Positions 1,006 to 64,000 of a stretch of DNA of 64,000 bases are shown here, in pieces. Location: the NCBI GenBank assembly GCA_037576215.1, contig JBANDB010000008.1:4092001-4156000 (forward strand). The letters are read 5' to 3'. The first letter of the stretch is position 1, and each line of letters opens with the position of its first letter. The position numbers were made by a program, and so were the translations under genes. The stretch is from Armillaria gallica. Taxonomy: Eukaryota > Basidiomycota > Agaricomycetes > Agaricales > Physalacriaceae. The notes under the pieces are model-generated. The model had not been told where the DNA came from, did no database searches, and worked only from the letters and a program-made list of their open reading frames with translations.

Positions 1006-1389
1006 CTAAACAATTTGGTAGCTGTACAACTGAAAGGACAGTGTGTACGCTGATGCTCCTTTCTTTGCAATAATCGCGAAGGGGCCTGTTCGTTTGTCTG
1101 CAAGTTTTTTCTTTGGTCGTGGGAGATTGAGGTTGATTGTATCAAGCCAAACCTTGTCTCCTACTTTATACTCGACTGCAGGTCGCTTTTTCTTGTTGTA
1201 CTGGGCTTTCATCTGGTCGGCGGCTTTCTTGAGTGATCGTTTTGCTTCAGCATGTATCTTTTGCATCTGCAAGATGAATGTAGTCAAGGCGAGGGTGTGG
1301 AAAGGTGCTTGGGGTTTGGCTCCTGGTTGGACGTTGGCATTATAGCCATAGTGCAGTTGTTGTGAGCGAACACCGCGAGTGAGAGCCAT
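1006..1389 (-). pseudogene. Integrase C-terminal module of Ty3 element 1
   Basis: The 127-codon open stretch continues the integrase after a frameshift near 1390-1410. It includes a basic helix (KRSLKKAADQMKAQYNKKKRP), the VGDKVWLDT strand, and GPFAII...GASAYTL, which is the GPY/F module that follows the catalytic core in Ty3 integrases. The frame then runs out at a stop, before any chromodomain; sequence further left shows no chromodomain that I can recognise. Known for the family: this module helps DNA binding and multimerisation. It is a remnant, not an independent gene. Confidence 0.8.
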
Positions 1390-1454
1390 TCTACCCAGTT
1401 GTTCTGGAGATGGTTGACAAAGATGCGAAGGTATTTTTCAACCTCCTGGTTGAC

Positions 1455-25001: not shown

Positions 25002-25123
25002 TGACAGATTTCTGGGATCTAAACTATTGGGACCAGTTGTTCAGTTGAACCTCAATTTTTCACACAAATATAACTAATAGTAAAGTCATATTGTGACATA
25101 AGCTCCATCCAATGAGCTTGTCT

Positions 25124-25937
25124 TCAGGAGAGGTTCTGTTGCTTATTGAACTTTTCCAGAGTGCTGTAATCAGTGTAGACTTCAAAGGAAGAGCTAAGCA
25201 GATCAATGTACCACTTCTTCAGGGCATGGATGATAGCCAGCAGCTCCTTCCTGTGAATAGAGTAATTAAGTTGAGCACCTGACAGCTGCTTAGAGTTGAA
25301 GGCCACTAGACAAACAGTTTCCCAGGTGGGGATGTGGGTGTAATCAGCTAGTTTAGGTAGAAAAACAGCTAGGTATTGAACAAGACCAAAGAAGAATTTG
25401 ATATTAGAAGTAGATTGAGAAACAGGCCAATCAAGTATGCACTGGACTTTCTTCTTACAAGCCTCAATTCCATAAATAGAGATGTGGTGGTTATAAAAAT
25501 TGACCTATTGAGATTTCTTTGGGTTGCAGCACAATTTGTACTACTGAAGAGTATCCATAATTAAATGTATATGTTTGATGTGCTCCTTCATATCCACATC
25601 CTGCAATTAGATAATAATATCATTCAAATACATATGACATATTCAGCATAGGAATAGGCAGAGCACAGCAGTGACATGTCATTGATGAATAGCTGGTGAG
25701 TTTTTCAGCTTTTAAGGCATTACAAGTCACTTATATAGGTCAAACAGAGTATTGACAGTAGTGAGAGGGATCAAAGCTTCATCTATGTGGGTGTGAAAGA
25801 ATGCATTAGTCATGTTAAGTTTCAATTAGATTCTTCTATGAGCAGCATTCATAAGAATGTCATTGATGCATAGTAAGGGATGCTTGTCTACAACAATGTT
25901 CATATTAAGTTGACAAAAGTCATTGACCCAGCAGAGT
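25124..25937 (-). pseudogene. RT (part) and RNase H of Ty3 element C
   Basis: From the LTR-C border at 25937 downward the minus strand gives WVNDFCQLNMNIVVDKHPL (the R-x-x-x-D-Y-R-x-L-N block), a decayed palm segment with LNDIII in place of the usual YLDDI motif, then the RNase H stretch 25306-25124 with LNYSIHRKELLAIIHALKKW and VYTDYSTLEKF. The block order and spacing match Ty3 RT-RNase H. Stops and frameshifts are numerous. Confidence 0.78.
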
Positions 25938-33175: not shown

Positions 33176-33373
33176 GATCCGAGTGTCAGAACCCACTATC
33201 AGATTTGAGTTTTAGATTTAATATGTGAAATAATAAAATAAAATAAAAATAAAATATTAAATAGAGCAGAGTAAATGATAAGCAGCCGGAGGCTGCCTAA
33301 TAATGTAATCTATTAAGGTGAAGTCAATGCTTGAAGTTAGTGTAGAGTGGAGGTTTGCAGCATGCACATAACA
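33176..33373 (-). repeat. Left (3') LTR of old family D copy, truncated
   Basis: It matches the last 200 bp or so of the 516-bp young LTR, through TTAATATGTGAAATA to GCATGCACATAACA. The first 300 bp are missing or unrecognisable. Confidence 0.78.
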
Positions 33374-34257
33374 GTATCCTCCTCTTAGCATTCTTGCCCT
33401 CAAGAGTGCTGATCCTGATGGCTGATTAATATTATTATATGTGCATAAAATTTGATTGTAAAAATTTTACAACTTAACTTTTTACTTTCACTATCTTTTT
33501 TCTTTTCATCACATCTCTCCTCATTACAAAAAATGTCTGTGCTCATCAAATATCATGACTCTGTAACTCCTAAGCCTTACGAGTTGGCATCAATGCCTTT
33601 TAAACTTTCTTTTGAAAATTATGAAGCATTAACAAAGGAATGGACTGTCACAGAGGAGTGTTATGAGGATATCATAAGTTGACATGACAACTGGAAAACA
33701 GTGAGAGCAAAGAAGGTCTAGGTGGAGAAATTAAAGCAGGATAAGTTGGCATGCCTATTTAAGATTGAGGCTCTAAAGAAGGAAAAGGAAGAGGCTGAAA
33801 GGCAGATGGAGTTGAAGAGGCAGGAGGATAAGTGGCTCTGGTTGGAGACTGAGAAGGCAGTGAAGGAGTTGAAGAAAAGAGAGAAGGCCACAGAGCATAA
33901 GTGGCTTGATGATTTGAAGACCAAGAAGGAAAAGAAGAAGGTGAATAAAGTGAACAAGCTGGCTTTGCAGGCTGCTGGTGCTCTGTTGGCAAGTGATAGA
34001 GATTTCGAAATGGATCTAGCAGATCTAAAAATGGCTGCAATGGTTAAATTGAAGAGGAGATGCAAGATTGCCAAGAAGAAGAAAAAGACAAATACTGCAG
34101 AGCCCTAAAAGTACAAGTTCTGGTCTGCAAGTGTGGTAGAGGAGAGTGAAGGAGAGGGTGGAGATGCATTAGTAGGGCCATCAACACCCAATTTGACCCA
34201 AGTGCTTAAAGACTGAGCCTACATCTTAGGCTAACAATAAGGTATTTACTGAAAATA

Positions 34258-34304
34258 GTATGTGAAACTGTCAGGACTCTGCTTTGTTTGCTGACTTGGG
34301 TTAG
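34258..34304 (+). other. Candidate intron in old antisense gene
   Basis: Forty-seven nucleotides from GTATGTG to GGTTAG with CTGAC 10 nt before the end. It lies directly before the six-cysteine block, after A of a split codon, as does the candidate intron at 54358-54399 of the young copy. Length and signals fit basidiomycete introns. No transcript evidence is available. Confidence 0.5.
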
Positions 34305-35007
34305 ATCATTGTGGCGAGTGTTGGTCTGACAGGGCCATCTGTTTCCTTCATGGCAGCATTTGTACTTGCCAGTGATGCTACATCAAGAAGGCAAGGTGTT
34401 CCTTCAACAAGAGTGGAGAGGATAGCAGCTCTCACAGATTCCAACAGTGTGCTGAAGTTATGTTAAGATATTTCCTCAAGGCTAGCACATTTGGAGAATA
34501 AGATCAAGCATGTTGTGGAGCAGATGAAGGATCTAATGGACAACTACTATGTAGATTATAACCTCAAGTATCCCAATAACTTTACTTTAAAATACACTAA
34601 GGCCAAATTCAAGGCATTGTGAATGGAACTCGGAAAAATGAGGGATATCTATAATGAGATGTTGCATGAGATGGCCAAGCAACAGCTTAATAGGGATATG
34701 GCCATCATCAAGACTGAGAGGTTACAGGTGCTGGCTTTGGACATGCTACTTGAAATAGATGACCCATACAAAATCCATTTCTACAACACATGTGGACACT
34801 GAAAGAGATGGCAGCTATGGAAAAGGCTGTTGAAGGATCAGGAAGGCTACAAGATGAAAGATTTGAATAAGCTCATGAACAAGAAAGAAGAAATTTGGGA
34901 GGAGATGGTTCTGAGAGTGGATCTAGAGGAAGAGGCCGAAAAGGAGCTCTGACAGCAAGCAACTGCAAGGATGAGGGCTTATAAATGATCAAGGGGTGAA
35001 GAGGTTG

Positions 35008-35385
35008 TGTTACAATTTATTTGTTTTCTTTATCTAAGCACCTCGCATCTTATCTTCAGCATTTATCTTATCTTATCCATAGGATCTGCGATTTCATGGA
35101 GCCATGACATCGTGATACAGTCATCATTGTTCACCTTGTGCATGTTTCTACTTTTTTCTTACATGATGCACTTATTATTAGAACCCTCACTTTAGTATAT
35201 AAGTACTGTAGCTCAAGCTGTATATTCTTTAGCTTTGAGCTAAAGTTTATTCATATCAAAACACATCTCTTCTCGCTAAGCACTAAAAATATTTAGTCCA
35301 ATCTTCTTTCATCATGAAACTCAATGGTGACTGTATAAACATGATACAGCTGTTGTTTACTCTTGATTGGAGTTTGGGTCTAACA
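35008..35385 (+). repeat. Solo LTR-A copy 3 with 5-bp target duplication
   Basis: 378 bp from TGTTACAATTTATTTG to TGGGTCTAACA, flanked by GGTTG on both sides (35003-35007 and 35386-35390). It matches LTR-A copies 1 and 2, including the TTATC series (about 35050-35080) and TATATAAG (35198-35205). It splits the old antisense gene of family D near its 3' end, so it is younger than that copy. Confidence 0.93.
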
Positions 35386-35689
35386 GGTTGAAAGCAAAGT
35401 TGAGATGTATGAGAATTTAGAGCCTATATTGGTACAGGAATTAAAAGTGGAAAAGGAAAATGAGAAGAAAGTAGATGATGTGGATATAGCAGATCCATCC
35501 AGAGCCAAAGCTTCTTGAACTTTGCCACCTTTGTATATCTTTTATTTGTATTTCTTGGTATTATTGTACAGTGGCCAGGCTATGATATATCAACTTTCTT
35601 AGACTTGAAAGTGAAGACTTGAAAAGAAAAGAAGAATGGATCTGATGAGTTCTGTTTCCAATTAAGAAATAGATTTGCAATAGTTTTTG

Positions 35690-36573
35690 TAGATTCAATT
35701 TGAAATAAAACTAATTGAAGCTGATGGAACCCAATGATGTTATATGTCAAGAAGGAAGTTAGATAGTGGATTTTTGAATAGTGACTTTGGCTAATGGTCC
35801 TGGTTTGTCTGGATAGTGATGGTGAAAATCTTCAATGAAATTGTCAGCAGAGAACTCAGTGGCTAGTAGTCAAGCAAACTCTTTGTCGGTGCCTTCATAG
35901 CCTAACCATTGAATCTTGTAGAGAAGAGGACACTGGAACTGGTGGTCAAGCTTGGAGTCTAGGATCTGAGCTATTTTGTACTGCTCTTTATTATTGACTT
36001 TCACTGGAGGTGGCAGAGGTTGAGTGCAATTAGGGATAGTGTTTTCTTCTACAAGTTCAAGTTATGATATATGAAAGACAGGATAAATGATATAGAGATC
36101 TGATGGAAGTTTAAAAGTGAAGAAATGGGAGCCTGAGCTATGATTTTAAATAGGCCAAGGAATTTCTCTATGAATTTCACAGTAGGACAAGTAGTCTTGA
36201 TATGCTTGGAACTAAGGAAGACTTTGGTTCCATCAGACTAATTCCAAGGTTTAATTTTAACTAAAATGATCTGCCAAGATATGATCATGATTATTCTGTA
36301 GGACATGGAGATAGAGATTCTTGAAGTTCAGGACATAGATGTGGTTATCAAGACAGTAAATGTCTGATTTATCTATAAACCACCAAGAGGGAGAAGTGGG
36401 AGTAAAGGATTTAGCCTGCTGGAAGCCTTTGGTGGTCATAGGGTTGGATAGTTGTGCTTATTTGATATCTAAATGGAGCTTGTCAATGTCTATTATAGCA
36501 CTAACATAAAGAGTTGGTCTTGAGTGAATACAGACTGGAAATTGTGAAAATTGACTGCTGCATATTGACTATC
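35690..36573 (-). pseudogene. 3' end of pol of old family D copy
   Basis: Minus strand sequence matches 55630-57313 of the young copy: chromodomain end (from about 35760), proline-rich linker, integrase C-terminal module, then across a deletion near 36235 the HHCC-finger and spacer region with DKSDIYCLDNHIYVL and VLQNNHDHILADHF (36439-36257). The catalytic core of integrase falls in the deletion. It ends at the right LTR border 36574. Confidence 0.82.
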
Positions 36574-37101
36574 TGTTAGGGACATGCCAAATAGACAAAG
36601 GTAACTTACATGAGCAGAGGTCTGCAGAGTGCATAGGCCTTGGCAAAGCTATTAGCAATGTCACCCTTAAGCTGAAGCCTTGAGATTGGATTGTGAAGCA
36701 GAGTCTGTGGAGAGCGAAGGTTGAATAGAGAGTAAAGATAGTCCAACAGAGTGGAGGCCACAGACTTTGGAGGGCGATGAAGTAGACTTAGAGTCAGAGA
36801 GAGATTTGGCTAAACCAAATTGATATTCGAACTAAGTATCTACAAGTAATTTTATAGTATATATATAAGTAGATAATCTGAGTCTGAGTCCGATGGAATC
36901 TGATGGAGATCTGTTTGCTACTAGATTCAGGTTCTAGATTTAATATGTGAAATAGTAAGATAAAACAGAAATGAAATATTAGATAGAGTGGAGTAAATAG
37001 TAAGCGGCCAGAGACTATGGAGGTCTAATAGCATGATCTGTTGATATTGAGTCTATGCTTGAAGTTGGTGTGGAGCAGAGGTCCATGGCATGTGCATAAC
37101 A
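36574..37101 (-). repeat. Right (5') LTR of old family D copy
   Basis: It starts TGTTAGGGACATGCCAAATA and ends GGCATGTGCATAACA, 528 bp, matching the 516-bp young LTRs along its full length, mainly with transitions. A TATATATA box is near 36860. Confidence 0.9.
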
Positions 37102-51290: not shown

Positions 51291-51690
51291 AGTTACTGAT
51301 ACTTGCAATTTTTGCTATTTTCACAGCCACACATCTTAGATCTACCACCCACTAATATGTGAGTACCTTATGTTTATTCATTCCATACCTTGCTGACATA
51401 CAGTAGATATATTCTATTTTATCCTCACAGGTACTGTACACATTTACTTAGTGACCTACCACCTGCTAAGATATATATTCTATTTTATTCTCACAGTCTG
51501 ATCCTCCCTGTACCTGTCTTGTCTTGCTCACTTGCCACTGTGTTCTCTCAAGAATTTCTGGTCCACTGCTCAACAGGTTATGGGCCCCAGTGACATATCT
51601 TCATCAACTTCCACTGTCAAACTCCTTAATCTACTCTACTGAAAAGACAATAGCATAAATTACATCCTATACAAGGAATGGATTCTGAAT

Positions 51691-52908
51691 GTGACCACCT
51701 CAAAAGGACTTAGACAAGTCTTGTATGAAACCACTAAGAAGCCCATAGAGATGACAGAGATAAACAGAGACTACTACCTACCAGGAAACTTAGCCCCTTT
51801 ATCTGATGATGAAGTTGAAAAGCAACTGACTCTTCAGGATATATATAAGCAGAAGGAGACACAGGTCTGTGAAATGATGTATGAGACAATCAGCATCTCA
51901 ACCTTCATGCAGATCAAAAACAAACCCACCACTGCCATGATAGGGAAGAAGCTCACTTCCATCTTTGAGGAGAAAGGCATCTTGACATAGGAGAACCTGT
52001 TCAACAAACTTCAAAACCAGCATTGCTCTGATGATGGAGATATTCAAATCCACCTCACCAACATGTTGAGGATGAGAGAAGAACTTGCTACAATGGAGAA
52101 GTCTATCAGTGGCAACTCATATGCCACCTACATCCAAACATCACTTCCAACAAGCTATAGACCCACACTCAACATGCTTAACATCACCTTATAAATGATT
52201 GGCAAGCCCATATCAAGCAGCCTTCTAATCCAGTGCATCCAAGAGACCACTGACCAAAGGCAAGTTGAGAAAGATATTAATGAGTCTGTACAGAACTCAG
52301 CACTGTTCTCAAGCAATAGTAAAGGTAAAAGAAAGGCTGCTGGGAAAAAGAAAGCAATAATGGTCTGCACTGTAATAACTGCAGCCATAACAACCATGTC
52401 AAGAGGGACTGCTATAGAGAGGGGGGAGGCAAAGCAGAGCAAGCACTATGGGACAAGGCTAAAAAGACAGCTTAAGCCAACACAGCAGAAAAGGCAGATG
52501 ACAAAAAACCTGTAAACCATAGATTCACAGCCATTCTAGAAGTCAACACACCTATCTTCAAGTGCACATCTGACTTCCAAGCACAAGCACAAGCCCTCAC
52601 AGCTTTGAGCAATGACACAATTTGCAAGGTCATTGACACCAGTGCAAGAAACCTTTTCACCGGCTACCACGAACAATTCAGAAACTTCACTGCCATTAAG
52701 CTCATCCCCATCAAAGCAGCAGATGGTTGAACATTCAGCATGATGGGTAAAGGAGACTATCCTACCCAATTACCAATGGGACTGAATCAAAAGCTGACAC
52801 CTGACACCCTTTTCAACACCTACTACTCATCTAGCATGGCATTCATGCTCATCTCAGTCAGCTACCTGGATCAAAGTGGATATGCACTCACCATTCAGGA
52901 TGGTAATT
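51691..52908 (+). pseudogene. Copia-2 gag and protease, left part
   Basis: 51691-52515 is one frame with a few stops: gag helices (LPGNLAPLSDDEVEKQLTLQ, NKLQNQHCSDDGDIQIHLTN, MREELATMEKSISGNSYATY). After a frameshift near 52355 comes the knuckle CNNCSHNNHVKRDC (C-x2-C-x4-H-x4-C), then FQAQAQALTALSNDTICKVI and DTSARNLFTGYHEQFRNFTA, the copia protease with D-T-S-A-R in place of D-S-G-A-S/T. The gene is cut at 52908 by the young family D element and resumes at 61652. Confidence 0.85.
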
Positions 52909-53424
52909 TGTTAGGGATGTGCCAAATAGACAAAGGTAACTCGCATGAGTGGAAGTCCGCGGAGTGTGTGGGCTTTGGCGAAGCTATTAGCAACATCACC
53001 CTTGAGCTGAAGCCCTAAGATTGGATTGCAGAGCGGAGTCTGCAGAGAGCGAAGGTTTGGATAGAGAGTAAAGGTAGTCCAACAGAGCAGAGGCCGTGGA
53101 CTTGGGGAGTGATAGATTAGACTTGGAGTCAGAGAGATTTGGCTAAACCAAGTTGATATTCGAACTGAGTATCTACAAGTAATTCTACAGTATATATATG
53201 AGTAGATAAATCCGAGTCGGAGTCCGATGGACTCCGGCAGAGGTCTGTTCACTACCAGATTCAGGTTCTAGAATTAATATGTGAAATAGTGAAATGAAAT
53301 GATAAATGAAATATCAAATGGGGTGTAGTCATAGTATGCGGTTGGAGGCCGTGGAGTCCAGTGCTGGTGTTAGGATTGAAGTTGGACTGGGTGTGAAGCA
53401 GAGTCTGGCAGCATGCATGTAACA
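52909..53424 (-). repeat. 3' LTR of young family D element
   Basis: 516 bp, plus strand TGTTAGGGATGTGCC to GCATGCATGTAACA, with short inverted ends TGTTA/TAACA. It contains TATATATA at 53191-53198. Against the right LTR I count about 35 differences, all but one transitions, mostly CG against TG or CA, and no length change. Confidence 0.96.
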
Positions 53425-53437
53425 GTATCCCCCCCTT
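53425..53437 (-). promoter_or_regulatory. Polypurine tract
   Basis: The minus strand reads AAGGGGGGGATAC directly before TGTTAC of the 3' LTR. A purine run next to the 3' LTR is the plus-strand primer for LTR retroelement replication. It fixes the element's orientation as minus. Confidence 0.85.
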
Positions 53438-53576
53438 AGCATTCTTGCCCTCAAGAGCGCTGATCCTGATGGCTGATCAATACTGTATGCCTGACAGGAT
53501 TTTCAAGCATGGGAATTTTGTCACTTAATCTCATACCACTACCATCTCCCTAATTATCTTTTCCTCACCATCTACC

Positions 53577-55352
53577 ATGTCGCAGCCTATCGAATACTGC
53601 CTCTCCATCACCCCCGAGCTGTATGAGTCAGCTCTGACACCCGAAGATATTACAATGGAGGAGATCGAAGCTCAGGCCGCCGCAGAGGAGAGTTATGCGG
53701 AGGCCATGGCAAAACATGCTGCTTGGAAGGAGGTGAAGATAGCGGCAGAGTGGGAGGACAATTTGAGGTTGGCTCATAAGGTGTGTGCTGCGAAGGTCGA
53801 GGCCTTGAAACAGAAGGCTGAGGAGAAGAGGAAGGCAGAGGAAAAGCGACAGGAGGAGGAACGGCTCCATTTGTTGAAGGAGCAGGAGGATGCCACGGAG
53901 AAGAAAAGGCTGGAGGATTTGAAGGCCAAGGAACTTGAGGAGGCCACAGAGAAAAAAAGAAAGGATGACTTGGAGAAAAAGGAGAAAAAGGATGCTGTGA
54001 GGAAATTGATGAAAGAACAAAAGAAACAAGAGAAAGCCAAGAAGGCAACAGAGTCTGGTGGACTCCTGGATGCAGCAGAGTTGTTGCGGGAGGAGAAGGG
54101 GACCAATGGAGATAGTGAGGGGGAGTTGTCAGAGGCGTCAAAGGCATGTGTACTTCAACAATTGAAGAAGAAGCGCGAAGGAAAACGGAGGGCGACGGAT
54201 TCTGTGGTGTCCACTGTGGAAGTGAGGAAAAGGAAATGGCCAACGACATCTGCGAGTGTGGTGGATAGCAGGGAGGAGGGGGTAGCTGGCCCTAGTAAGA
54301 GGGTAAAGTTGGAGGTCACGGGCCCCGCAGAGGGCGAAGATGAATTTTTGGGAACTAGTAGGTGTTTTCTTCCGGCGGCTTATTGTTTACTGACTTCAGT
54401 TTCAGAGCGCTGTATGCAATGCTGTCTCGATAGTGTCAGATGTTTTGCAAAACCGGCCTCCAAAAAATCCAACCAAGAACAGACTTGCTCTTGTTGCAAG
54501 ATCAAGAAATCTGCTTGTTCTTTCAACAAGGGAGCAACTTCCTCGCTCGCCGTCAGCTCCGATGAGGTCTTGGAGGTTCTTCACAATTTGGTGGTGACCA
54601 TGACTGTTCTGGCTGGGAAGGTTGATAGTTTAACAGGAGAAGTTGCTTCCCTCCAGAGCCGTGTTGGTGACCTCTGCGATGACTATTGAACGGAAGATAT
54701 TGAGTCGCCAAAGGATCTTCTTTTGGAGTCCGATACCGAGGAGTGGAAGGCGTTGTGTGCCAAGTTGCACGATTTGGAGGGGGTGAATAGTGAGGCACTC
54801 TGGCGGGTGATGGGATTCTGGTTGGATCGTGACATTGCACAGCTGAGGAAAGGGGGGCTGCTGGAGCCCAAGGAGGTGGATCCTAAGGACCCATACGAGA
54901 TTGCCAACTGTCAGTTCTGGTATGGCACCAGCGGCCTGGAAATGATTGAGACCATGAAGGTGCGACGTGAACTGTTCCAAGCTACAAGGAACAAGTTCTA
55001 CAAGTTGGGAGGCTGCCAGTCCGAATGGCAGTTTTGGAAGGGCTACCTTCGTAAGCACAACTGTGACGATTTTCTGGTGGAGGACTCAGATCTGGAGGAG
55101 AAGGTTCTGGATGGCAAGGTTCGGAAGTCGCGGAAGCCATACAGGAAGGACTTGGGCATCCTGGCATTGGATGGCCTGTTTGTATTGGATGGTGATTCTG
55201 CAGGGGCGACAACAAGTGAAGGGGATGGAGATGGAAGTGGTGAGAGTGAGGAAGGATCAGAGTCCATGGAGGACGACGGAAATGCACTGGCAGGGGGTAC
55301 TGACGATGTGGAGATGGGAGAGGTCGCAGATGTGGGAGCCCTGAATGCCTAG
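53577..55352 (+). CDS. Antisense accessory gene of Ty3 family D: coiled coil plus Zn2Cys6-like cysteine cluster
   Basis: One frame of 592 codons, broken only by TGA at 54687-54689 (codon 371). Residues 31-160 form a highly charged Ala/Glu/Lys coiled coil; 195-245 are basic, with KRRATD, RKRKW and KRVKLE as possible nuclear signals. Cysteines 279, 282, 289, 304, 307 and 314 follow C-x2-C-x6-C-x14-C-x2-C-x6-C, the layout of a fungal Zn2Cys6 cluster with a long linker, with KIKK in the second half. Residues 328-368 are a second coiled coil. After the TGA, 209 codons (54723-55352) hold a Trp-rich domain (WRVMGFWLDRD, CQSEWQFWKGYLRK) and a strongly acidic tail. The old copy has a sense codon at the TGA position. 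A role in transcription or host interaction is a guess. Confidence 0.8.
54358..54399 (+). other. Candidate intron in the antisense gene
   Basis: Forty-two nucleotides from GTAGGTG to ACTTCAG with a CTGAC branch-like site 9 nt before the end. Its length is a multiple of three, so the frame stays open spliced or not. It is short for a basidiomycete intron. The equivalent site of the old copy has GTATGTG...CTGAC...TTAG of 47 nt, at the same codon phase just before the cysteine block. The match of two independent copies is the support. Confidence 0.45.
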
Positions 55353-55472
55353 CTTCTTCCTCTTGTCGCCGTTCTTCTTGGACAAGTTCTTTTACACATA
55401 TTTTGTATGTTTTGTCTTTGGCTTTTTTGAATGCATCCGGGGCCTGCAGGGCCCCAATTCTTGTTGACTTGT

Positions 55473-55478
55473 AATAAA
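55473..55478 (+). terminator. AATAAA signal after the antisense gene
   Basis: AATAAA 121 bp behind the stop at 55352 and before the tail-to-tail end of pol at 55686. It could serve polyadenylation of the plus-strand transcript. Isolated hexamers occur by chance, so this is weak. Confidence 0.3.
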
Positions 55479-55581
55479 GTGGAAGATGAGAAGACTATTT
55501 GCAATAGAAGGCAGGAAATGAATATGAAATACAGCGTACGGATTCCGCTGGAGGCCGGTCTCGTTTAGGAAATGAATTTGC

Positions 55582-55631
55582 AATAGGTTTTGTGGATTCT
55601 ATTTGAAATAGGTTTTGTGGATTCTATTTGA
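55582..55631. repeat. 25-bp tandem duplication
   Basis: Two adjacent 25-bp units containing AATAGGTTTTGTGGATTCT. The old family D copy has a single, diverged unit at the matching place (near 35677-35705), so the duplication arose in the lineage of the young copy. Confidence 0.8.
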
Positions 55632-55685
55632 AATAAGAGAGGGTGGAGCCGGTGGAGACCGATAATGTTACAGGTGAGGGAGAAG

Positions 55686-58600
55686 TTAAATGGTGGATTT
55701 TCGGATAGTGACCTTGGATAACGGTCCTGGTTTGTCTGAGTAACGGTGGTGGAAGTCATCAATGAATTTGTCCGCAGAGAATTCGGTAGCTGGTAACCAA
55801 GCGAATTCCTTGTTGGTGCCTTCATAACCTAACCATTGAATCCTGTAGAGAAGAGGGCACTGGAACCAGCGGTCAAGTTTGGAGTCTAGGATCTGAGCTA
55901 TTTCGTACTGCTCTTCACCGTCGACTTCCACCGGAGGCGGTGGAGGTTGAGTGCAATTGGGAATAGTGTTTTCTTCTACTGGTTCCAGTTGTGATACATG
56001 GAAGACAGGGTGAATGGTGTGGAGGTCTGACAGGAGTTTGAGCGTGAAGGAATGGGAGCCTGGTTGAGCTAAGATTTCAAATGGGCCAAGGAATTTCTCT
56101 GTGAATTTCGCGGTAGGATGAGTAGTCTTGATGTGCTTGGAGCTAAGGAAGACCCTGTCACCTACTTTGAAGGGAGGAGCCGGATTCTGGCACTTGTCTG
56201 CTTGGATCTTGTAGCGAGACTGCGCCTGAGTGATTTCATCACATAGGAATTGGTGTAGTTCATCTAGGTTGACTACGAAGTCGCGGGCCCGAGCAGAGGC
56301 AATATCATGTTCAGGATGAACAGTGATATTAGGATGATAACCCTTGTTGGCAAAGAATGGCGAGATTCCAGTGGAGGCATTCGGGGCATTGTTGTATGCA
56401 AATTCAGCAATGGGTAGTAGTAAATCCCAGTTGTCCTGTTGATAAGAACAATAGATGCAGATATACTGTTCCAAGGTTTGATTTGCACGTTCTGTTTGTC
56501 CATCGGCCTCCGGGTGATAACCAGAAGTGAAGTGAAGTTCCATGTCAAGGGCTTTGGCAAGGGCACGCGTGAATTGGGAGACAAACTTGGAGCCACAGTC
56601 AGAGGTGATGTGGTTAGGAACACCATGCTTGGAGAACACATGAATGACGAATAACTGGGCGAGTTCTTCAGAATTAATGGTGTCGTGTGTAGGGATAAAG
56701 ATAGCTTGCTTGCTTGCGCGGTCGATTACAACAAGGATAGCAGTGAATCTGTTGGAGTCCAGTAACTGTTCAATGAAATCCATTGAAATGGAATCCCACA
56801 GACATTCCAGAACCAGCAAAGGTTTCAGCAAACCATAAGGGCGATGTCTAGGTGTCTTGTTGCAACCGCAAATCGTGCAAGATTTGACGTAGTGGCAAAT
56901 ATATTCACGCATCTGCAGCCAGGTATAGCTCCGACAGACTAATTCTAAGGTCTTATTTTGGCCAAAATGACCTGCCAAGATGTGATTGTGATTATTCTGT
57001 AGGACACGGAGACGGATATCCTCGGAGTCTGGGACATAGATGTGATTATCAAGACAGAGAATGTCTGATTCATCTAAGGACCACCGAGAGGGAAAAGTGG
57101 GAGTGGAGGATTTGGCCAGATGGAAACCATCAGAGGCCATGGAGTCAGATGATTGTGCTTGCTTGATATCTAAATGGAGCTTGTCAATATCCATTATAGC
57201 ACTAGCACAGAGGGTAGGGCCTTCAAGGAAGGTGGCGCGGAGAGATGCGGAGAGTTGTTCTTGAGTGAATACAGGGCAGAAATTGTGAGGATTGACTGCT
57301 GCATATTGACTATCCCTCTCTTTTGGATAGACGTCCCCTCGTCTAGTGAGTGTGTCCGGTGTTCCTCCGAGTTTCCCCAGTTGGAAGCGGATTACTAGAT
57401 TGAATTGGGATAGGTATTCAGACCACCGGACTTGGTGCCGGGTAAGAATCTTGGTGGTAGAAAAATATTCAAGATTCTTGTGGTCCGTTACAATGTTGAT
57501 TGGATCTGCGGAGCCTTCAAGGTAGTGACACCAGTATTTAAAGGCTTCAAAGATAGCTAGAAGCTCTTTATCATGGGTGTCGTAGTTGAGTTCGGCATTG
57601 TGGAGGCTCCGGGATAGGAAAGCGATAGGGTGGATTTCGCCATTGTCAAGGTAGATAGAGAGGATAGCAGCAATGGCATAGTCAGAGGCGTCGGTCTCTA
57701 CAACTAATTGCCGATTGGAGACCCAATGGGTAAGGATAGGGGCATGAGTGAAGGCTTGCTTTAGTTCATTGAAAGTGGCCATGCACTTGTTGTTGAATTT
57801 CCACGGAGTTCCTTTGCGTGTGAGGCGAGTTAAAGGAATAACGATGTCACTGTACTCGTGGATGAAACGGCGGTAGAAATTGGCGAAGCCAAGGAAGGAT
57901 TGGATGTCCTTAACTTTCCACAGAACTGGCCAATCTAAAATGGCCTTGACCTTGTCTTCAGACATGCGGAGGCCCTCTGGTGAGAGAATGTAGCCTAGAT
58001 ATTCCATGGAATCCCAGTGAAACTCGCATTTGGATCCTTTGCAGTAGAGCCCGTTTACTCTTAATCTGTGCAGAACCTCGCGTACATGCTGCCAGTGCTC
58101 TGCGAGGTCATTGGAATAGATGAGGATGTCATCGAGGTATACGACTATGGAAACGTCAAGCATGTCAGTAAAAATGTCATTCACGAAGCGTTGGAATGCC
58201 ATGGGAGCATTGGTGAGCCCAAAAGGCATGACACGCCATTCGAAGGAGCCGTAACGGGTCTGGAAGGCTGTTTTCCATTCATCACCTTCAGCTATGCATA
58301 CAAGATGATAAGCATGTTGGAGATCAAGTTTGGTATAGATGCGAGCGGAGCGCACGGAGTCAAGGAGGTCAGAAATAAGTGGAAGGGGATAACGGTCTTT
58401 CTTGGATATCTTGTTTAAGCCATGGAAATCGACACAGAGGTGGAGTTCTCTGGTCTTTTTCTTGACAAAAAGCACTGGAGCTCCATGGGGAGAACGTGAG
58501 GGTGTGATGAATCCACTATGGATATTATCATCAATAAACTCACATAAAGCTTTGAGCTCGGACTCTGAGAGGGAGTAAATTGGCCCAAGCGAAGGAGATG

Positions 58601-58742
58601 TTCCTTCCTCAATATTGATCTTGAGGTCATATGGTCTATGCTCAGGGAGTTTCTTGGAGAGCGAGTCACTGAAAACATCAGCAAAGTCGTGATATTCTGC
58701 TGGTACATCTGTCATATCTGGCCGGGCCATGGAACTGGCCAT
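55686..58742 (-). CDS. pol: RT - RNase H - integrase - chromodomain polyprotein of young family D element
   Basis: 1018 open codons. RT at about 35-300: D140 in KLDLQHAYH, D204 and D205 in YLDD. RNase H at 340-470: D351, E393, D420, D463. Integrase: zinc finger H587, H592, C622, C625; core D655, D715, E751 (spacing 59 and 35); GPFEIL module at 886. A chromodomain spans about 943-1000 (YEIAQILDSKL, YRIQWLGYEG, FAWLPATEF). All catalytic residues expected in these families are present. It shares its frame with the protease upstream, separated by one TGA at 58808-58806. Chromodomains direct integration to marked chromatin in known chromoviruses. Confidence 0.96.
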   Translation of the reverse strand: MASSMARPDMTDVPAEYHDFADVFSDSLSKKLPEHRPYDLKINIEEGTSPSLGPIYSLSESELKALCEFIDDNIHSGFITPSRSPHGAPVLFVKKKTRELHLCVDFHGLNKISKKDRYPLPLISDLLDSVRSARIYTKLDLQHAYHLVCIAEGDEWKTAFQTRYGSFEWRVMPFGLTNAPMAFQRFVNDIFTDMLDVSIVVYLDDILIYSNDLAEHWQHVREVLHRLRVNGLYCKGSKCEFHWDSMEYLGYILSPEGLRMSEDKVKAILDWPVLWKVKDIQSFLGFANFYRRFIHEYSDIVIPLTRLTRKGTPWKFNNKCMATFNELKQAFTHAPILTHWVSNRQLVVETDASDYAIAAILSIYLDNGEIHPIAFLSRSLHNAELNYDTHDKELLAIFEAFKYWCHYLEGSADPINIVTDHKNLEYFSTTKILTRHQVRWSEYLSQFNLVIRFQLGKLGGTPDTLTRRGDVYPKERDSQYAAVNPHNFCPVFTQEQLSASLRATFLEGPTLCASAIMDIDKLHLDIKQAQSSDSMASDGFHLAKSSTPTFPSRWSLDESDILCLDNHIYVPDSEDIRLRVLQNNHNHILAGHFGQNKTLELVCRSYTWLQMREYICHYVKSCTICGCNKTPRHRPYGLLKPLLVLECLWDSISMDFIEQLLDSNRFTAILVVIDRASKQAIFIPTHDTINSEELAQLFVIHVFSKHGVPNHITSDCGSKFVSQFTRALAKALDMELHFTSGYHPEADGQTERANQTLEQYICIYCSYQQDNWDLLLPIAEFAYNNAPNASTGISPFFANKGYHPNITVHPEHDIASARARDFVVNLDELHQFLCDEITQAQSRYKIQADKCQNPAPPFKVGDRVFLSSKHIKTTHPTAKFTEKFLGPFEILAQPGSHSFTLKLLSDLHTIHPVFHVSQLEPVEENTIPNCTQPPPPPVEVDGEEQYEIAQILDSKLDRWFQCPLLYRIQWLGYEGTNKEFAWLPATEFSADKFIDDFHHRYSDKPGPLSKVTIRKSTI

Positions 58743-58805
58743 TCCGCTGATGCTAGGTGCAGAAGGTTGGAGGGTGTATTGTTGAGTTCCATCTTCAGCA
58801 CATGC

Positions 58806-59507
58806 TCAAACAAAAGCAGCCATGGAGATGATAGATATCTTGGGTGTAACTGTTGCAGAAAAGGAAGGGACGGTAGGGTAGGAATAGATGGGTTCGTATG
58901 GCGGCGGAGTCTGTTGGGATCTCGGAGTTGGCTTAGGAGCCGGGTTGGAATTAGGAATAGGAGTTGGATGAGGAATGTCTGCACGGTTAGATGCAGTTGC
59001 ATTGGATGCCGCGGAAGCGCTTGCAGGGGAAGAGACACCTGGTAATGGTGAACAGAAAGTGATACTGTGCTTTGCCCAGTCAATCAACGGATTGCAGCGG
59101 GAGAGCCAGTTGTATCCTAGAACAATGTTACAGGATGAATCTAGATGAGTGACATAGAAGTCGATAGAGATGATGTCTCCAGAAGGGAAATGGACTGGAA
59201 GGGTAATGGATTGAGAAATGTGAGATCCGGCGGAGCCGTCAAGGAGCTGAAGTTGGACAGGAGAGATAGGTTTGGTAGGAAGGTTGTGATCCTCAATGTA
59301 TTTGGAGTCGACAAAACAGTGGCTGGAACCAGAGTCAACCAAGGCAAGAAAACAAAGGATAGTAATGATTGGAGAGTCATCGGACTCCATACTGGAGCCA
59401 ACTTCAGAAGAGAGTGATACGGTTAGTGAATGGTTGGAAAGAGCAGTGGCATTGAGGGTGACAACCTCCGATGTGCGATTACAGTCAATGCAACCCTGAT
59501 CTCGCAT
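58806..59507 (-). CDS. Aspartic protease part of family D pol
   Basis: 233 codons in the same frame as the RT polyprotein. The active site is [12 protein letters not shown] with D58, and the second block is [19 protein letters not shown] at 126-145, both typical of Ty3 retropepsins. A proline-rich linker follows ([17 protein letters not shown]). The frame ends in TGA where CGA fits (FV-stop-ACAEDG). It is in the -1 frame relative to gag and overlaps the gag end around 59507-59535, so a -1 frameshift may have joined them; the slippery site was not identified. Confidence 0.88.
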
Positions 59508-59527
59508 GGAGGATACAGGGCTGCCCT

Positions 59528-61021
59528 CTAGTTTTCCAGCTCCGACGGAGCCAGATCCTCAGAGGCAGGAGCAGGTTCTTCAACTTCTGTGGCACAGCCT
59601 TTAGTGGAGGCTGCAGCCTTGCATTTGTTGCAGTCCTTGGTCTTGTGCTTGCTTCCACAGAACATACAGAGATTGTTCTTCTAGCGATGGTCCTTCTCTT
59701 CTTGAGTGAGGTGTCCATCCTTGCCTAGCTTGTCAGCATAGGGCTTAGGGTTCGAAGCGGATCCTGAGGAATTGGAATCGGAAGACTTTGGAGCTGATCC
59801 AGAAGTCAAAGAACTGGAGTTGGAATTGGAACCCTTGGATTTAGGGTTGTTGGAATATGAACCAGAGGACTTGTTTTCCTGGTTTTCATGGGATATCTCA
59901 GTCCTCTGAGTCCAATAGCATGCGTTGAGTTCTTAGGCTAGGAAACGCATGTCACAGAGGTTGTTAGGTTTCCCGTGGTGAGCCATATCATCCTTAATGC
60001 ATGTACAAAGTCTGCGGTAGAAAGCATGGTGAAGGGAATTGTCGCTGTAGCCAACTTGGGAGGCATATTGATTGAACTGAACCATATACTTCATGATTTG
60101 GTCTCTGTCGCACATATGGAGATGTTCGAGGGCATCCTTGGCATCTCCGATAGCATCGAAAGGACCAAAGTTGGTTCGAAGTTCGTCAAGGAAGGCAGTG
60201 TAAGAGTATTGCCATGCCGCCAGATTCCGCAGATTGGGATGGAGGATGTCTGGTTCAAACCAGTCAAGAGTGGTGCCGGAAAGGAAGGAGATGGCATAGT
60301 TGACTTTGCTGGCATCCACCGCAAAAGCAGTGGGTCTGTCATTAAAGTTCAACTGAAGCGAGACAATGAAAGCCTTAAGCTTCCATGGGTTGGAGCCGTC
60401 AAATGTATCAGGTTCTTTGACCTTGGTACAGATGTTGTTGGGTTGAGGATTGTTTAGCGAAGTGGAAACCCCATGCAACAGGTTCATGAATTCTCATAAG
60501 AATTCTTGCTTGTTGGGAATATTGTTGTTGGGTCCACCCGGTCCTCCTGGTCTATTGGGACCTCCAGATCCTCCGAGGCCTCCGGGACCACCAGGACCAC
60601 CTGGTCCTCCTGGTCCATTGAGGCTGCCAGGGCCTCCAGGTCCATTCGGGCTACCTGGGGAGTCGGATCCATCATCACCCTGGTTGTGTCGATTCGGAGG
60701 ATGAGTGGGGGTATCGGTTTCACCTCCAGAATCATCAGATCCCGTGGTGTCCGTTTGTTCCCCATTGGAGGTGGGTGGAGGTGCTGGGGTGTGTGGATCC
60801 AGATTTTCTTGGTATCCATCGAATATGCCTGTCCTTCGGTGACATAGAAGGTCGTCAGGTGGCGGAGTATCGAAAGGGTTAGGAGAACCGTAGTTGTCGG
60901 ATTGACGAGCAGTGAAACTGGAGTGGCTGTAGGTTTCCCTACGGGATGGTTGTTCTCTGACGGAGGCCAATCTGAAGAGTTCTGGATTTTCCTTAGATGC
61001 GGATGCTACTATGTCTTCCAT
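59528..61021 (-). pseudogene. gag: Gag of young family D element, with three in-frame stops
   Basis: One frame of about 497 codons interrupted by TGA 60496-60494, TAA 59935-59933 and TAG 59683-59681. N-terminus: disordered, with a collagen-like Gly/Pro repeat at about 60530-60700 ([10 protein letters not shown]). Middle (60487-59933): capsid-like region with TFDGSNPWKLKAFIVSLQL, SFLSGTTLDWFEPDIL and QFNQYASQVGYSD. C-terminus: knuckle CMFCGSKHKTKDC (59668-59630, C-x2-C-x3-H-x4-C). The stops fit CGA to TGA and CAA to TAA changes. The family needs all these parts for particle assembly, so this copy cannot make full gag without a helper. Confidence 0.88.
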
Positions 61022-61135
61022 GGAAAAGATTGGTGTTTTTCACTTTGGGCCTTCGCCTGTCTCTGGAGAGTAAGTGTATGTGGTTGTCATGATTTAGAGA
61101 AAAAAATTGACTCAAGGGGTTGAGTTCGAATATAC

Positions 61136-61651
61136 TGTTAGGGATGTGCCAAATAGACAAAGGTAACTCACATGAGCGGAAGTCTACAGAGTGCATGGGC
61201 TTTGGCGAAGCTATTAGCAACGTCACCCTTGAGCCGAAGCCCTAAGATTGGATTGCGGAGCGGAGTCCACGGAGAGCGAAGGTTTGGATAGAGAGTAAAG
61301 GTAGTCCAACAGAGCGGAGGCCGTGGACTTGGGGAGCAATAGATTAGACTTGGAGTCAGAGAGATTTGGCTAAACCAAGTTGATATTCGAACTGAGTATC
61401 TACAAGTAATTCTACAGTATATATATGAGTAGATAAATCTGAGTCGGAGTCCAATGGACTCCGGTGGAGGTCTGTTCGCTACCGAATTCGGGTTCTAGAA
61501 TTAATATGTGAAATTGTGAAATGAAATGATAAATGAAATATCAAATGGGGCATAGTCATGGTATGTGGTTGGAGGCCGTGGAGTCCGGTGCTGGTGTTAG
61601 GATTGAAGTTGGACTGGGTGTGAAGCGGAGTCCGGTGGCATGCACGTAACA
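61136..61651 (-). repeat. 5' LTR of young family D element
   Basis: 516 bp, same length as the left LTR. TATATATA at 61419-61426 lies about 230 bp into the LTR from its transcription-side edge and could serve the minus-strand genomic transcript. The bases just inside (minus strand GTATATTCGAACTC) do not start with TGG, so the primer site is not of the usual tRNA 3'-end type or is altered. Confidence 0.96.
61419..61426. promoter_or_regulatory. TATA-like box of family D LTR
   Basis: TATATATA, conserved in the other LTR (53191) and in the old copy. Being palindromic it could serve either strand; in the left LTR it lies about 380 bp before the ATG of the antisense gene, which might use it. Inference from position only. 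Confidence 0.4.
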
Positions 61652-64000
61652 TAACTGCACTATACAAAGCTCACAGCTGAAATGCAAAATGATTGGCATA
61701 ATCCCAGTGACCAGAGGCCTGTACCATATAACTGTTCCTAGAGCACCTCCACCCATGCCCAATACCTCCATTACTGCATCAGCCAAATGTCTTGTAACAA
61801 TGAGGGAGTTTCACAACCTTATGGGCCACCCAAGCAAAGTAGTTCTCATCATAATGACAAAATCTGGATCAACACTTGGCATCCACATTGATCTAGGGAT
61901 CAAGGTTGGGTTCTGCCAGGCATACATTCAAGCCAAAGCTTCCCGAAGGCCCTTCCTGAAGATCAGTCTAGAAAACAAGACAGCAAAAGCATATGGCAAC
62001 AAGGTCATGACAGATGTCTGGAGATTTGCCAACACTGAGTTAATTAATGGTTACAGATACAGCAACACCTACCAGGATGTCTCATCATGGAAGGAAAAGG
62101 TCTACTTCATAAAGAAAAAGTCTGAATCATACTCACACTACCAGAAGTATGAGCCTTGGGAAAAAGTGCAATGTGGTGTAAAGAACATATAGATACTTGG
62201 CTCAGACCAAGGGGGAGAGTTCATGAGCAAGGAATTCAAAGACCACCTTGATCACACTAGAACAGCATGTCATTTAACTGTCCATAACTCACCCCAATCC
62301 AATGAAATGGCAGAGTATAGCAACCACTCACATCTTGAAGGTGCTTGAGCTATGCTTATCAAGGCAGGGCTACTACTGTATCTATGGGTTGAGGCTGTAT
62401 CACACAAAGTATGGCTAAAGAACAGGACACCCCACAGTGCATTAGAGAGCAATATCACCTCACATGAGAAGACAACTCACCAGAAGCCTGACCTCTCTCA
62501 GCTATGCAAATTTGGGTGCACTGTCTGGGTGAAGAAGCTCAAGTGATGCAAACTCCAACCCCAGGCAGATGCTGGCTGTTTCATTGGCTTTGACAAAGAA
62601 TCCAAAGGCATTTGAGTGTACTGGCCTGAACAGAGAAGAGTCAGTGTTGAAAGAGATGTTTATTTTGACAATGAAAAGACACTCAAGTCTGAAGACATCA
62701 AGATTGAGGGGGAGACAGTAACAAACCCCAATCCAGCCACTCCCAACTTGAGCCTGAAGCCCAAAAGTCAAGCAGATGAACCTGAAATCCCCAAAGCTGT
62801 ACTGGATATGCCTTATGAACACTCACTATCACCACTCACACCACCTCTCAACAGTCCTAGTTCTGCTCCACACAAGCAATGTGTCCAAATCACAGATAAC
62901 ACTGAAGATCAAGAGGATCCTGAACCTCTCAGCAGAGGACATCATTCCAGAAGAAAGCCAGACAGATTCTACAATGATAACCAACTGTCAAAGTAATCTG
63001 CAACAAAGCACACCCTTATCATCGAAGATGAAAGGAGCACTGAGTCAAAGACAGAGCTTGAAGCCAAAGAAGAAGAGTGGTTTGCTGGCCTATAGATGTT
63101 TGCATTTGCAATGAACTATGGAGAGCCTGAGAGCCTGCAGGAGGCACTGAAAGGAGACAAGGTGAGGGAATGGAAGCAAGCAATAGGAGATGAGCTGGAC
63201 AAAGTCAAAGCCCTGGAAACTTAGGAGATAATTCCCAGGCCACACAGTGCCAATGTGGCCAAATGCCAATACACCTTCTGAGCCAAAAAGGATGAGATGA
63301 ACAGAATTGTACACTGCAAAGCACACCTTGTTCTCAAAGGCTTCTTTCAAATATATGGCATCGACTTTCATAAAACCTTTACCTCAACTGTTTGACTCAT
63401 GACCCTCTGTATTCTGCTATCTGTTGCAGCCAGTAAGGGCTCAGCAATCCAACAAGCTGACATCAAAAATGCCTACCTACAAGCTGAGCTCAAAAAAACC
63501 ATCTACATGGAACTCCCTCCCATGTACAACTTGTTCTAAACCATTCCCAAACACCTGAAGAGCAAGCAACTAGTATTCAAGCTCCTCAAACCTCTCTGCA
63601 GCAGCCATCAGGGCACAAACAAGTGATACAACAAGCTAAAGGGTGTTTTCATGCAGCTAGGATATCAAGTATGCCTTTCAGATGAAACCATATTCTACAG
63701 ATTTGATGGCAACAGGTACACCATTGTCACTGCTGCTACCAATGACTTCATTATCATAGCTAACTAAGACAAATCTGTGACACTTGTCAAGAAGCAGCTT
63801 AGTGAGCACTTCAAAATGACTGATCTCAGCACCCTTCACTAGCTGCTTGGCATTGGCATAAAGCATGATCTTACCACAAGGACCATCACACTAGATCAGT
63901 ATGGCTACCTCAATGCAATAATCAAGGACATGGGTCTAGAAAATGCCAGAACAGTTACAACACCACTCAAGCCTAGAGTCAACCTCAGCTATGACTCACC
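61652..64000 (+). pseudogene. Copia-2 integrase and RT, right part, truncated by window edge
   Basis: It continues copia-2 after the nested element. GAG-pre-integrase: REFHNLMGHPSKVV (61810). Integrase: GSDQGGEFMSKEFKDH (62200) and HNSPQSNEMAEYSN (62285), then AMLIKAGLLLYLWVEAVSHK and SQLCKFGCTVWVKKLK (62350-62545). Linker (62616-62996) is proline/serine-rich. RT: ALKGDKVREWKQAIGDELDK (63148), HCKAHLVLKGFFQIYGIDFH, QQADIKNAYLQAELKKTIYM (63450), and the palm motif reads A-T-N-D instead of Y-V-D-D near 63740, so RT is dead. RNase H lies outside the window. Stops are scattered in a mostly single frame. Confidence 0.9.

What the first reader, a model, noticed from the sequence alone, without database searches (positions are those of the whole stretch)
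53577..55352. A Ty3 retrotransposon family carries a ~590-codon gene on the opposite strand with a Zn2Cys6-like cysteine cluster
Between pol and the 3' LTR, tail to tail with pol, lies a long plus-strand frame: charged coiled coil, basic patches, six cysteines spaced C-x2-C-x6-C-x14-C-x2-C-x6-C, second coiled coil, Trp-rich domain, acidic tail. Antisense extra genes are known in some plant LTR elements, but a binuclear-zinc-like regulator in a fungal chromovirus is not something I can name. It could be a self-encoded regulator, silencing antagonist or captured host transcription factor.
Basis: partly seen in the sequence, partly recalled or inferred. Interest (0 to 1): 0.88.

Follow-up and report, generated by a model that had tools for sequence, protein, structure and literature searches.

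The report
Hypervariable antisense gene in fungal retrotransposon
A family of fungal jumping genes carries, on its opposite strand, an intron-bearing and selectively conserved gene for a probable zinc-binding nuclear protein, and versions of this one gene are swapped between otherwise closely similar elements.

Summary
Between pol and the 3' LTR of an 8.7-kb Ty3 element (window 52909-61651, minus strand) lies a plus-strand gene. It is not one 590-codon frame: a conserved intron (54358-54405 here) splits it, and this copy has one in-frame TGA (54687-54689). The cysteine spacing is as stated; 19 of 23 copies read keep it. Searches give 67 merged loci in the genome; each of the 48 listed pol matches (42 copies) has the gene tail to tail. 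Median dN/dS is 0.20 (exon 1) and 0.27 (exon 2), against about 1 in four of the five other frames, so it is an element-encoded protein gene. New here: LTR, gag and pol are about 90% identical between copies, while parts of the antisense gene fall to 60-78%, with about fivefold more four-fold-site transversions than pol and conflicting trees. Old, selected alleles are shuffled between elements. Best reading: a nuclear, dimeric zinc-cluster trans-regulator or anti-silencer of the element. DNA binding is inferred; Pfam Zn_clus does not match. Antisense extra genes are known in plant elements and in fungal Boty (brtn): a new variant of a known kind.

The parts
52904..52908 (.). target-site duplication, left copy TAATT (right copy TAACT at 61652-61656, one C/T difference)
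   Evidence: read
52909..53424 (-). 3' LTR of the Ty3 element, TGTTAGGG...GTAACA on the plus strand; its U3 end faces the antisense gene
   Evidence: 92.9% identical to the 5' LTR over 520 aligned columns, 34 transitions and 3 transversions
53425..53576 (+). 5' leader of the antisense gene; the promoter must lie here or in the LTR
   Evidence: inference from anatomy
53428..53439 (-). polypurine tract (CTAAGGGGGGG on the minus strand)
   Evidence: read; similar in the 19 copies aligned
53577..54357 (+). antisense gene, exon 1 (260 codons plus 1 nt): charged coil, basic NLS-like patches (KRVKLEV)
54358..54405 (+). intron, GTAGGT...CTGAC...TTTCAG, phase 1; a GT...AG intron lies at the corresponding place in the 21 copies
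   Evidence: candidates in L043, L044
54406..55352 (+). antisense gene, exon 2: six-cysteine cluster, coiled coil, Trp-containing region, acidic tail
54411..54518 (+). six-cysteine cluster C-x2-C-x6-C-x14-C-x2-C-x6-C
54687..54689 (+). in-frame TGA that breaks this copy
55473..55478 (+). AATAAA, possible poly(A) signal of the antisense gene
   Evidence: AATAAA also found downstream in 6 of 10 other copies looked at
55686..58805 (-). pol: RT, RNase H, integrase, SH3_Tf2-1, chromodomain-like C-terminus
58806..59558 (-). aspartic protease region
59933..60493 (-). gag (Retrotrans_gag, Ty3_capsid)
61136..61651 (-). 5' LTR

Best explanation
The region is a real accessory gene of a Ty3 family with a chromodomain-like pol end, read against gag-pol. 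Shown here: conserved position, conserved intron, conserved cysteine cluster, purifying selection on this frame, and exchange of alleles between elements. Inferred: RNA polymerase II starts in or just inside the 3' LTR on the opposite strand; the mRNA is spliced once and ends between the two genes. The intron is antisense to the genomic RNA, so it survives reverse transcription. The protein enters the nucleus (basic patches), dimerises by its coiled coil, and uses the six-cysteine cluster to bind DNA of the element's own LTR and non-coding parts, with the acidic tail as effector. It acts as a self-encoded trans-regulator, most likely keeping element promoters active against host silencing; many copies carry strong CpG loss, so they have probably been methylated or targeted by a RIP-like process. 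Template switching between co-packaged genomic RNAs reshuffles alleles of this gene onto a shared gag-pol backbone, and selection has kept many old alleles.
For: Linkage: 48 of 48 listed pol rows (42 distinct copies) have the gene downstream on the other strand within 6 kb; 42 of 67 gene loci sit within 5 kb of a listed pol row and 6 more were shown by other calls (18, 74). Selection: against the window copy, dN/dS 0.13-0.28 in exon 1 (20 of 22 pairs defined), 0.15-0.35 in exon 2 (21 of 22), pol 0.12-0.39 (21 of 21; one copy has no pol); frame control: median 0.20 and 0.27 in this frame, 0.86-1.43 in four of the five other frames, and 0.35 in the minus frame whose third positions coincide with this gene's. 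Intron of 44-50 nt with a GTRNGT donor in 21 of 21 copies. Six cysteines at 100, 100, 91, 87, 96 and 87% of 23 copies against a mean of 63%. Exchange: synonymous divergence 2-6 times that of pol in most pairs with the window copy; four-fold transversions median 0.189 against 0.036, higher in 62 of 63 comparisons, three pairs being counted twice; edges of the divergent block inside or at the end of the gene; AU tests reject each region's grouping on the other's data. Profile match of the cysteine block to 12 host Zn2Cys6 domains: score 22.0 against mean 14.9 for 200 cysteine-keeping shuffles, 6 of which reach it. CGG-N3-CCG and CGG-N2-TCC enriched in one LTR against shuffles. CpG o/e 0.07-0.97 across the fetched stretches.
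Against: Pfam Zn_clus does not match any piece tested, and none of its 54 matches in the genome is one of these loci. 6 of 200 cysteine-keeping shuffles reach the profile score, and swapping the two halves scored higher (24.6), so the basic side lies mainly in the second half, unlike the host domains. The LTR CGG motifs are not distinctive against internal windows in W and L027 and only partly so in L029, L030 and L039, and they were tested after being seen. If the protein read the LTR, U3 should co-vary with it; this is strong only when the five distant or long-branch copies are included, and within the main 14 copies it is weak and fades with distance, as plain linkage would. No transcript, binding or methylation data were available.
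Confidence: 0.5

Rival explanations
1. An accessory replication or nuclear-import factor: the basic coiled-coil protein joins the particle or pre-integration complex and carries it to heterochromatin, without regulating transcription.
For: Basic patches and coiled coils; copies cluster in a few regions on several contigs; plant antisense proteins have been suggested to act in nuclear steps (PMC7264820, section 7).
Against: A protein working closely with the shared gag-pol machinery should co-evolve with it, yet the gene is swapped against pol (correlation of pairwise identity of the gene's parts with the pol end -0.08 to 0.11).
Confidence: 0.2
2. A self-limiting regulator: the antisense protein represses the element or its relatives (copy-number control), and allele diversity lets new variants escape repression by resident copies.
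For: Allele exchange and old diversity fit frequency-dependent escape; Ty1 has a self-encoded inhibitor, p22 (PMC4599808, title and start of abstract seen in the listing).
Against: Nothing in the sequence tells repression from activation; the acidic tail leans towards activation (inference).
Confidence: 0.15
3. RNA-level function: antisense transcription itself, not the protein, regulates the element.
For: Antisense transcripts that may regulate elements are discussed in PMC7264820 (passages).
Against: dN/dS well below 1 in this frame and about 1 in most others, and cysteines kept in copies with about 37-45% amino-acid identity, need a protein.
Confidence: 0.04
4. A captured host transcription factor that still serves the host.
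For: Six-cysteine spacing like fungal Zn2Cys6.
Against: None of the 54 PF00172 matches of this genome is one of these loci; each of the 49 loci examined lies beside this Ty3 pol or, in one case, beside its LTR. Eighteen loci and all other species were not examined.
Confidence: 0.04
5. The divergence contrast is a local mutation-rate effect, not allele exchange.
For: The block is one contiguous region.
Against: Trees of the parts conflict with AU rejections, and copies share one part of the gene but not the next.
Confidence: 0.05

Closest known systems
Boty-like Ty3 elements of Botrytis and Sclerotinia with antisense gene brtn (Zhao et al. 2011; the paper itself not seen, only its citation in PMC7264820 and PMC8365987)
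   Same: fungal LTR element with one antisense gene between pol and 3' LTR
   Different: no sequence was available here to compare; the passages read mention no zinc cluster, intron or allele exchange
Plant antisense ORFs of Retand (TRP28 domain), Grande gene23, RIRE2 (PMC7264820 sections 5-7 and passages; PMC11963269 passages)
   Same: position, orientation, presence in most copies, suggested nuclear or DNA-binding role
   Different: plant hosts, different domains; the passages read report no zinc cluster and no exchange of alleles against a uniform backbone
VANC anti-silencing proteins of Arabidopsis VANDAL transposons (PMC5735166 and PMC10398659, abstracts)
   Same: element-encoded, diverging protein, here proposed to act likewise on its own family's non-coding DNA
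   Different: DNA transposons (recalled), other protein family; binding and loss of silent marks shown there, only inferred here
Fungal Zn2Cys6 regulators (Gal4 type, Pfam PF00172)
   Same: CX2CX6C-linker-CX2CX6C followed by a coiled coil; acidic tail (Gal4 layout recalled)
   Different: not matched by the Pfam model; 14-residue linker in the main type; basic residues mainly in the second half
Antisense regulators of retroviruses driven from the 3' LTR (HTLV antisense promoter mentioned in PMC7264820; HBZ recalled)
   Same: a gene read from the 3' end against gag-pol
   Different: protein and host (recalled; not compared)

Membership tests
[quoted passage not shown]
   48 of 67 loci shown beside pol, 1 with LTR only, 18 not examined; the 3' LTR itself was checked in the window and in 20 of 20 stretches
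LTR-element antisense accessory ORF between pol and 3' LTR | protein under purifying selection | tested here: met
Chromovirus (Ty3 with chromodomain) | C-terminal chromodomain after integrase | tested here: met
   Clr4 chromodomain chain at E 8.2e-5; PF00385 E 2.6e-4 to 4.7e-3 in 4 of 4 copies, all below Pfam's cut-off, directly after an SH3_Tf2-1 match above its cut-off
Fungal Zn2Cys6 (PF00172) | six-cysteine spacing CX2CX6C-X(5-12)-CX2CX6-9C (range recalled) | tested here: inconclusive
   spacing met except linker 14 in 17 copies; 8 in L043, L044
Fungal Zn2Cys6 (PF00172) | match to the family profile | tested here: not met
   no match; hhalign to host domains probability 67, reached by 6 of 200 shuffles
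Fungal Zn2Cys6 (PF00172) | binuclear zinc fold | tested here: inconclusive
VANC-like anti-silencer | binds own-family non-coding DNA and removes silencing | not testable with these tools
   only motif counts, weak
brtn of Boty | sequence homology | not tested

The most novel reading that the evidence does not exclude
The antisense gene is an exchangeable specificity cassette: one retrotransposon backbone maintains an allelic series of zinc-cluster proteins, reshuffled by template switching and kept diverse by conflict with host silencing or with rival copies, comparable in logic to VANC diversification or to specificity-subunit swapping.
Probability: 0.3. Interest if true: 0.8.

Novelty: new variant of a known kind. 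Interest (0 to 1): 0.62.

Why it matters
The function of antisense accessory genes in LTR elements is stated to be unknown (PMC7264820, section 5). Here a single genome supplies many alleles on a near-constant backbone, a natural experiment: which non-coding stretch tracks which allele can be tested directly with methylation, small-RNA and binding data. If the protein is an anti-silencer, it would extend sequence-specific anti-silencing from plant VANDAL transposons to fungal retrotransposons.

Tried and rejected
Chance ORF: rejected by dN/dS with frame controls, the intron and the cysteines. Openness of the frame alone is weak evidence in exon 1, since two minus-strand frames there also have few stops: 1.10 and 1.30 per 100 codons against 0.76 in the coding frame; in exon 2 the coding frame has 1.60, decayed and frameshifted copies included. 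Minus-strand stop-to-stop frames of 150-213 codons overlap the gene; selection sits on the plus frame: dN/dS is about 1 in two of three minus frames, and the third (0.35) shares its third positions with the gene.

Rows dropped: the identity profile was run for 9 of 22 copies, all against the window. L035, L036, L040, L043 and L044 are not in the trees; L041, L042 and L038, or L025, L038 and L026, were left out of single AU tests. L035, L036, L038 and L040 are not in the segment correlations or the frame control. Codons with stops were left out of dN/dS. L024, L034, L035 and L038 do not match the strict cysteine pattern, L035 and L038 by disruption, L024 and L034 by substitutions; a stop codon inside the pattern was allowed (L023, L036). 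For one search, 15 of the 19 matching cysteine blocks and 12 host domains were used; of 16 host stretches fetched, 13 gave a domain by pattern and one of these (L053) was dropped.

Full report
WHAT IS THERE. The window holds an 8.7-kb Ty3 element on the minus strand: LTRs at 52909-53424 and 61136-61651 (92.9% identical, 34 transitions and 3 transversions; near-perfect target duplication TAATT/TAACT), gag 59933-60493, protease 58806-59558, pol 55686-58805. The pol C-terminus has a Tf2-1-type SH3 and a chromodomain-like stretch: the best PDB match is the Clr4 chromodomain, E 8.2e-5, while PF00385 stays below Pfam's cut-off. On the plus strand, between pol and the 3' LTR, lies the finding (53577-55352). 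It is two frames, 386 and 220 codons stop to stop, separated by a TGA at 54687-54689.

A GENE WITH AN INTRON. In many related copies the match changes frame just before the cysteines. There each of the 21 copies examined has a GT...AG intron of 44-50 nt with a GTRNGT donor and a branch-like motif near its end (the search pattern demanded these, and I chose the borders among its candidates); the distant copies L043 and L044 have a candidate at the same place. In 17 of 21 copies the length is not a multiple of three. The intron is the least conserved of the segments compared (mean identity 0.583) while donor and acceptor are kept. In the window it is 54358-54405, 48 nt, in phase, so it reads through. 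After splicing, 3 of 21 copies are open to the normal end (577, 582 and about 562 codons). An intron lying antisense to the genomic RNA would survive reverse transcription (inference); its conservation argues for a separate plus-strand transcript, which I could not test.

COPIES AND LINKAGE. Searches of the genome (86.0 Mb, 28 contigs) gave 115 and 63 matching pieces for the two parts, which merge into 67 loci (same strand, within 4 kb). The pol search scored 44 of 1228 first-look candidates and listed 48 matches, 42 copies after merging; all 48 have the gene downstream on the opposite strand within 6 kb. Of the 67 loci, 42 lie within 5 kb of a listed pol; six more were shown beside pol by other calls: L036, L038 and L041, L061, L062 and the window's own second copy. 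One (L040) has the LTR but no pol in 9.9 kb, and 18 were not examined. Of the 20 stretches of 9.9 kb fetched, 19 show pol and all 20 show the LTR next to the gene. The two distant copies L043 and L044 also carry this pol on the other strand.

SELECTION. Nei-Gojobori dN/dS between the window copy and 22 others: exon 1 0.13-0.28 (20 defined), exon 2 0.15-0.35 (21 defined), pol 0.12-0.39 (21 pairs, one copy without pol). On an independent alignment of 19 copies the medians are 0.20 and 0.27 in this frame; four of the five other frames give 0.86-1.43, and the fifth, a minus frame whose third positions coincide with the gene's, 0.35. Because many copies are decayed, these values probably understate the constraint. 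The six cysteines are kept in 100, 100, 91, 87, 96 and 87% of 23 copies against a mean column conservation of 63%; 19 of 23 keep the exact CX2CX6C-Xn-CX2CX6C pattern, n = 14 in 17 and 8 in two, stops inside the pattern being allowed.

THE UNEXPECTED PART. The gene is far more divergent than the element that carries it, at synonymous sites too. Examples (exon 1 / exon 2 / pol dS): window against L027 1.41 / 0.76 / 0.26; L030 against L037 0.88 / 1.49 / 0.25; a counter-example, window against L024, is 0.38 / 0.44 / 0.29. Counting only transversions at four-fold sites, which CpG decay cannot make, the medians are 0.189 in the gene and 0.036 in pol, and the gene exceeds pol in 62 of 63 comparisons (three references, three pairs counted twice; the exception is L037-L035). 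Identity profiles of nine copies against the window run at about 90% through gag and pol (pol end only for L043 and L044), fall to 60-78% in parts of the gene (47-71% in L043 and L044), and recover at or just after its end, with breakpoints that differ between pairs: L023 shares the first two thirds of the window's gene but not its end, L032 and L029 share the end but not the middle. Trees agree with exchange: pol joins the window copy to L032, most of the gene joins it to L023 and L024, and its tail to yet others. Pol data reject W+L023+L024 (p 0.007) and L029+L030+L032 (p 2.5e-61), gene data reject W+L032 (p 2.6e-32), tail data reject W+L023+L024 (p 9e-70) (groups chosen after seeing the trees). 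Pairwise identity of the gene's parts does not correlate with that of the pol end (-0.08 to 0.11), correlates with U3 (0.70-0.78) and little with R-U5 (0.20-0.29) (the U3/R-U5 split was placed by me). Without five distant or long-branch copies the U3 correlation is weak and fades along the gene (0.53 to -0.05). U3 is inherited from the 3' end of the RNA next to this gene and U5 from the 5' end, so this is what template switching during reverse transcription would leave (inference).

WHAT THE PROTEIN MAY DO. Charged coil, basic NLS-like patches, a six-cysteine cluster, a well-predicted helix for the second coiled coil and an acidic tail suggest a dimeric nuclear regulator. The cysteine block aligns to 12 host Zn2Cys6 domains with the cysteines matched (hhalign score 22.0, probability 67). 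Of 200 shuffles that keep the cysteines, 6 reach that score (mean 14.9); 40 shuffles that do not keep them reach at most 16.4; swapping the two halves gives 24.6. So it resembles a Zn2Cys6 cluster mainly by spacing, with the basic side in the other half, and it is not a Pfam Zn_clus member. CGG-N3-CCG occurs 5 times in one LTR against 0.09 expected from shuffles, but the contrast with internal windows is uneven. The copies have lost CpG to very different degrees (o/e 0.07-0.97 in the fetched stretches; 0.18 in window 1-46000), which points to cytosine methylation or a similar silencing process. I therefore favour a self-encoded regulator acting against silencing, at about even odds for 'DNA-binding regulator' and about one in four for 'anti-silencer' in particular.

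COMPARISON. [quoted passage not shown] PMC11963269, passages; brtn also in PMC8365987, passages); their function is called unknown in PMC7264820. VANC proteins (PMC5735166, PMC10398659, abstracts) are the nearest working analogy. In the listings of my searches for such genes in fungal elements I saw no title or abstract start describing a zinc-cluster antisense gene or exchange of such a gene; these cover open-licence papers only, and the listings were capped. In PMC3248453 (fungal LTR survey) a term search gave no 'antisense' or 'opposite', and in the Laccaria survey PMC3411680 none of five terms. The class 'antisense accessory gene' is thus known; the zinc-cluster-like protein and the exchange of old alleles on a uniform backbone are what appears new.

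Noticed in passing
window 33194-37007: A second, strongly decayed copy of the same element: LTR match at 36574-37007, LTR fragment at 33194-33262, pol end at 35762-36133 (-), antisense-gene fragment at 33533-33916 (+), same arrangement.
   Followed up: partly
G000 contigs C4, C14, C6, C7, C8 and others: Copies cluster in a few regions on several contigs (for example C4 4.08-4.23 Mb, C14 1.54-1.67 Mb), which could be centromeric heterochromatin; not tested.
   Followed up: no
G000 C2 6.1-6.8 Mb and C5 5.46-5.63 Mb: About a dozen or more Zn_clus matches with the same profile range (2-37) and similar scores lie in two regions; possibly another repeat family with a zinc-cluster gene.
   Followed up: no
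window 60500-60680, minus strand: Next to gag a stretch that looks by eye Gly/Pro-rich and repetitive (collagen-like) on the minus strand.
   Followed up: no
window 51600-52908 and 61657-64000: The flanks look by eye like two parts of a decayed Copia-type element, so the Ty3 copy seems inserted in it; not tested.
   Followed up: no
window 1039-3590 and 25031-25921: Other, distant Ty3 pol stretches (36% and 26% identity) with no match to the antisense gene beside them in the same search.
   Followed up: no
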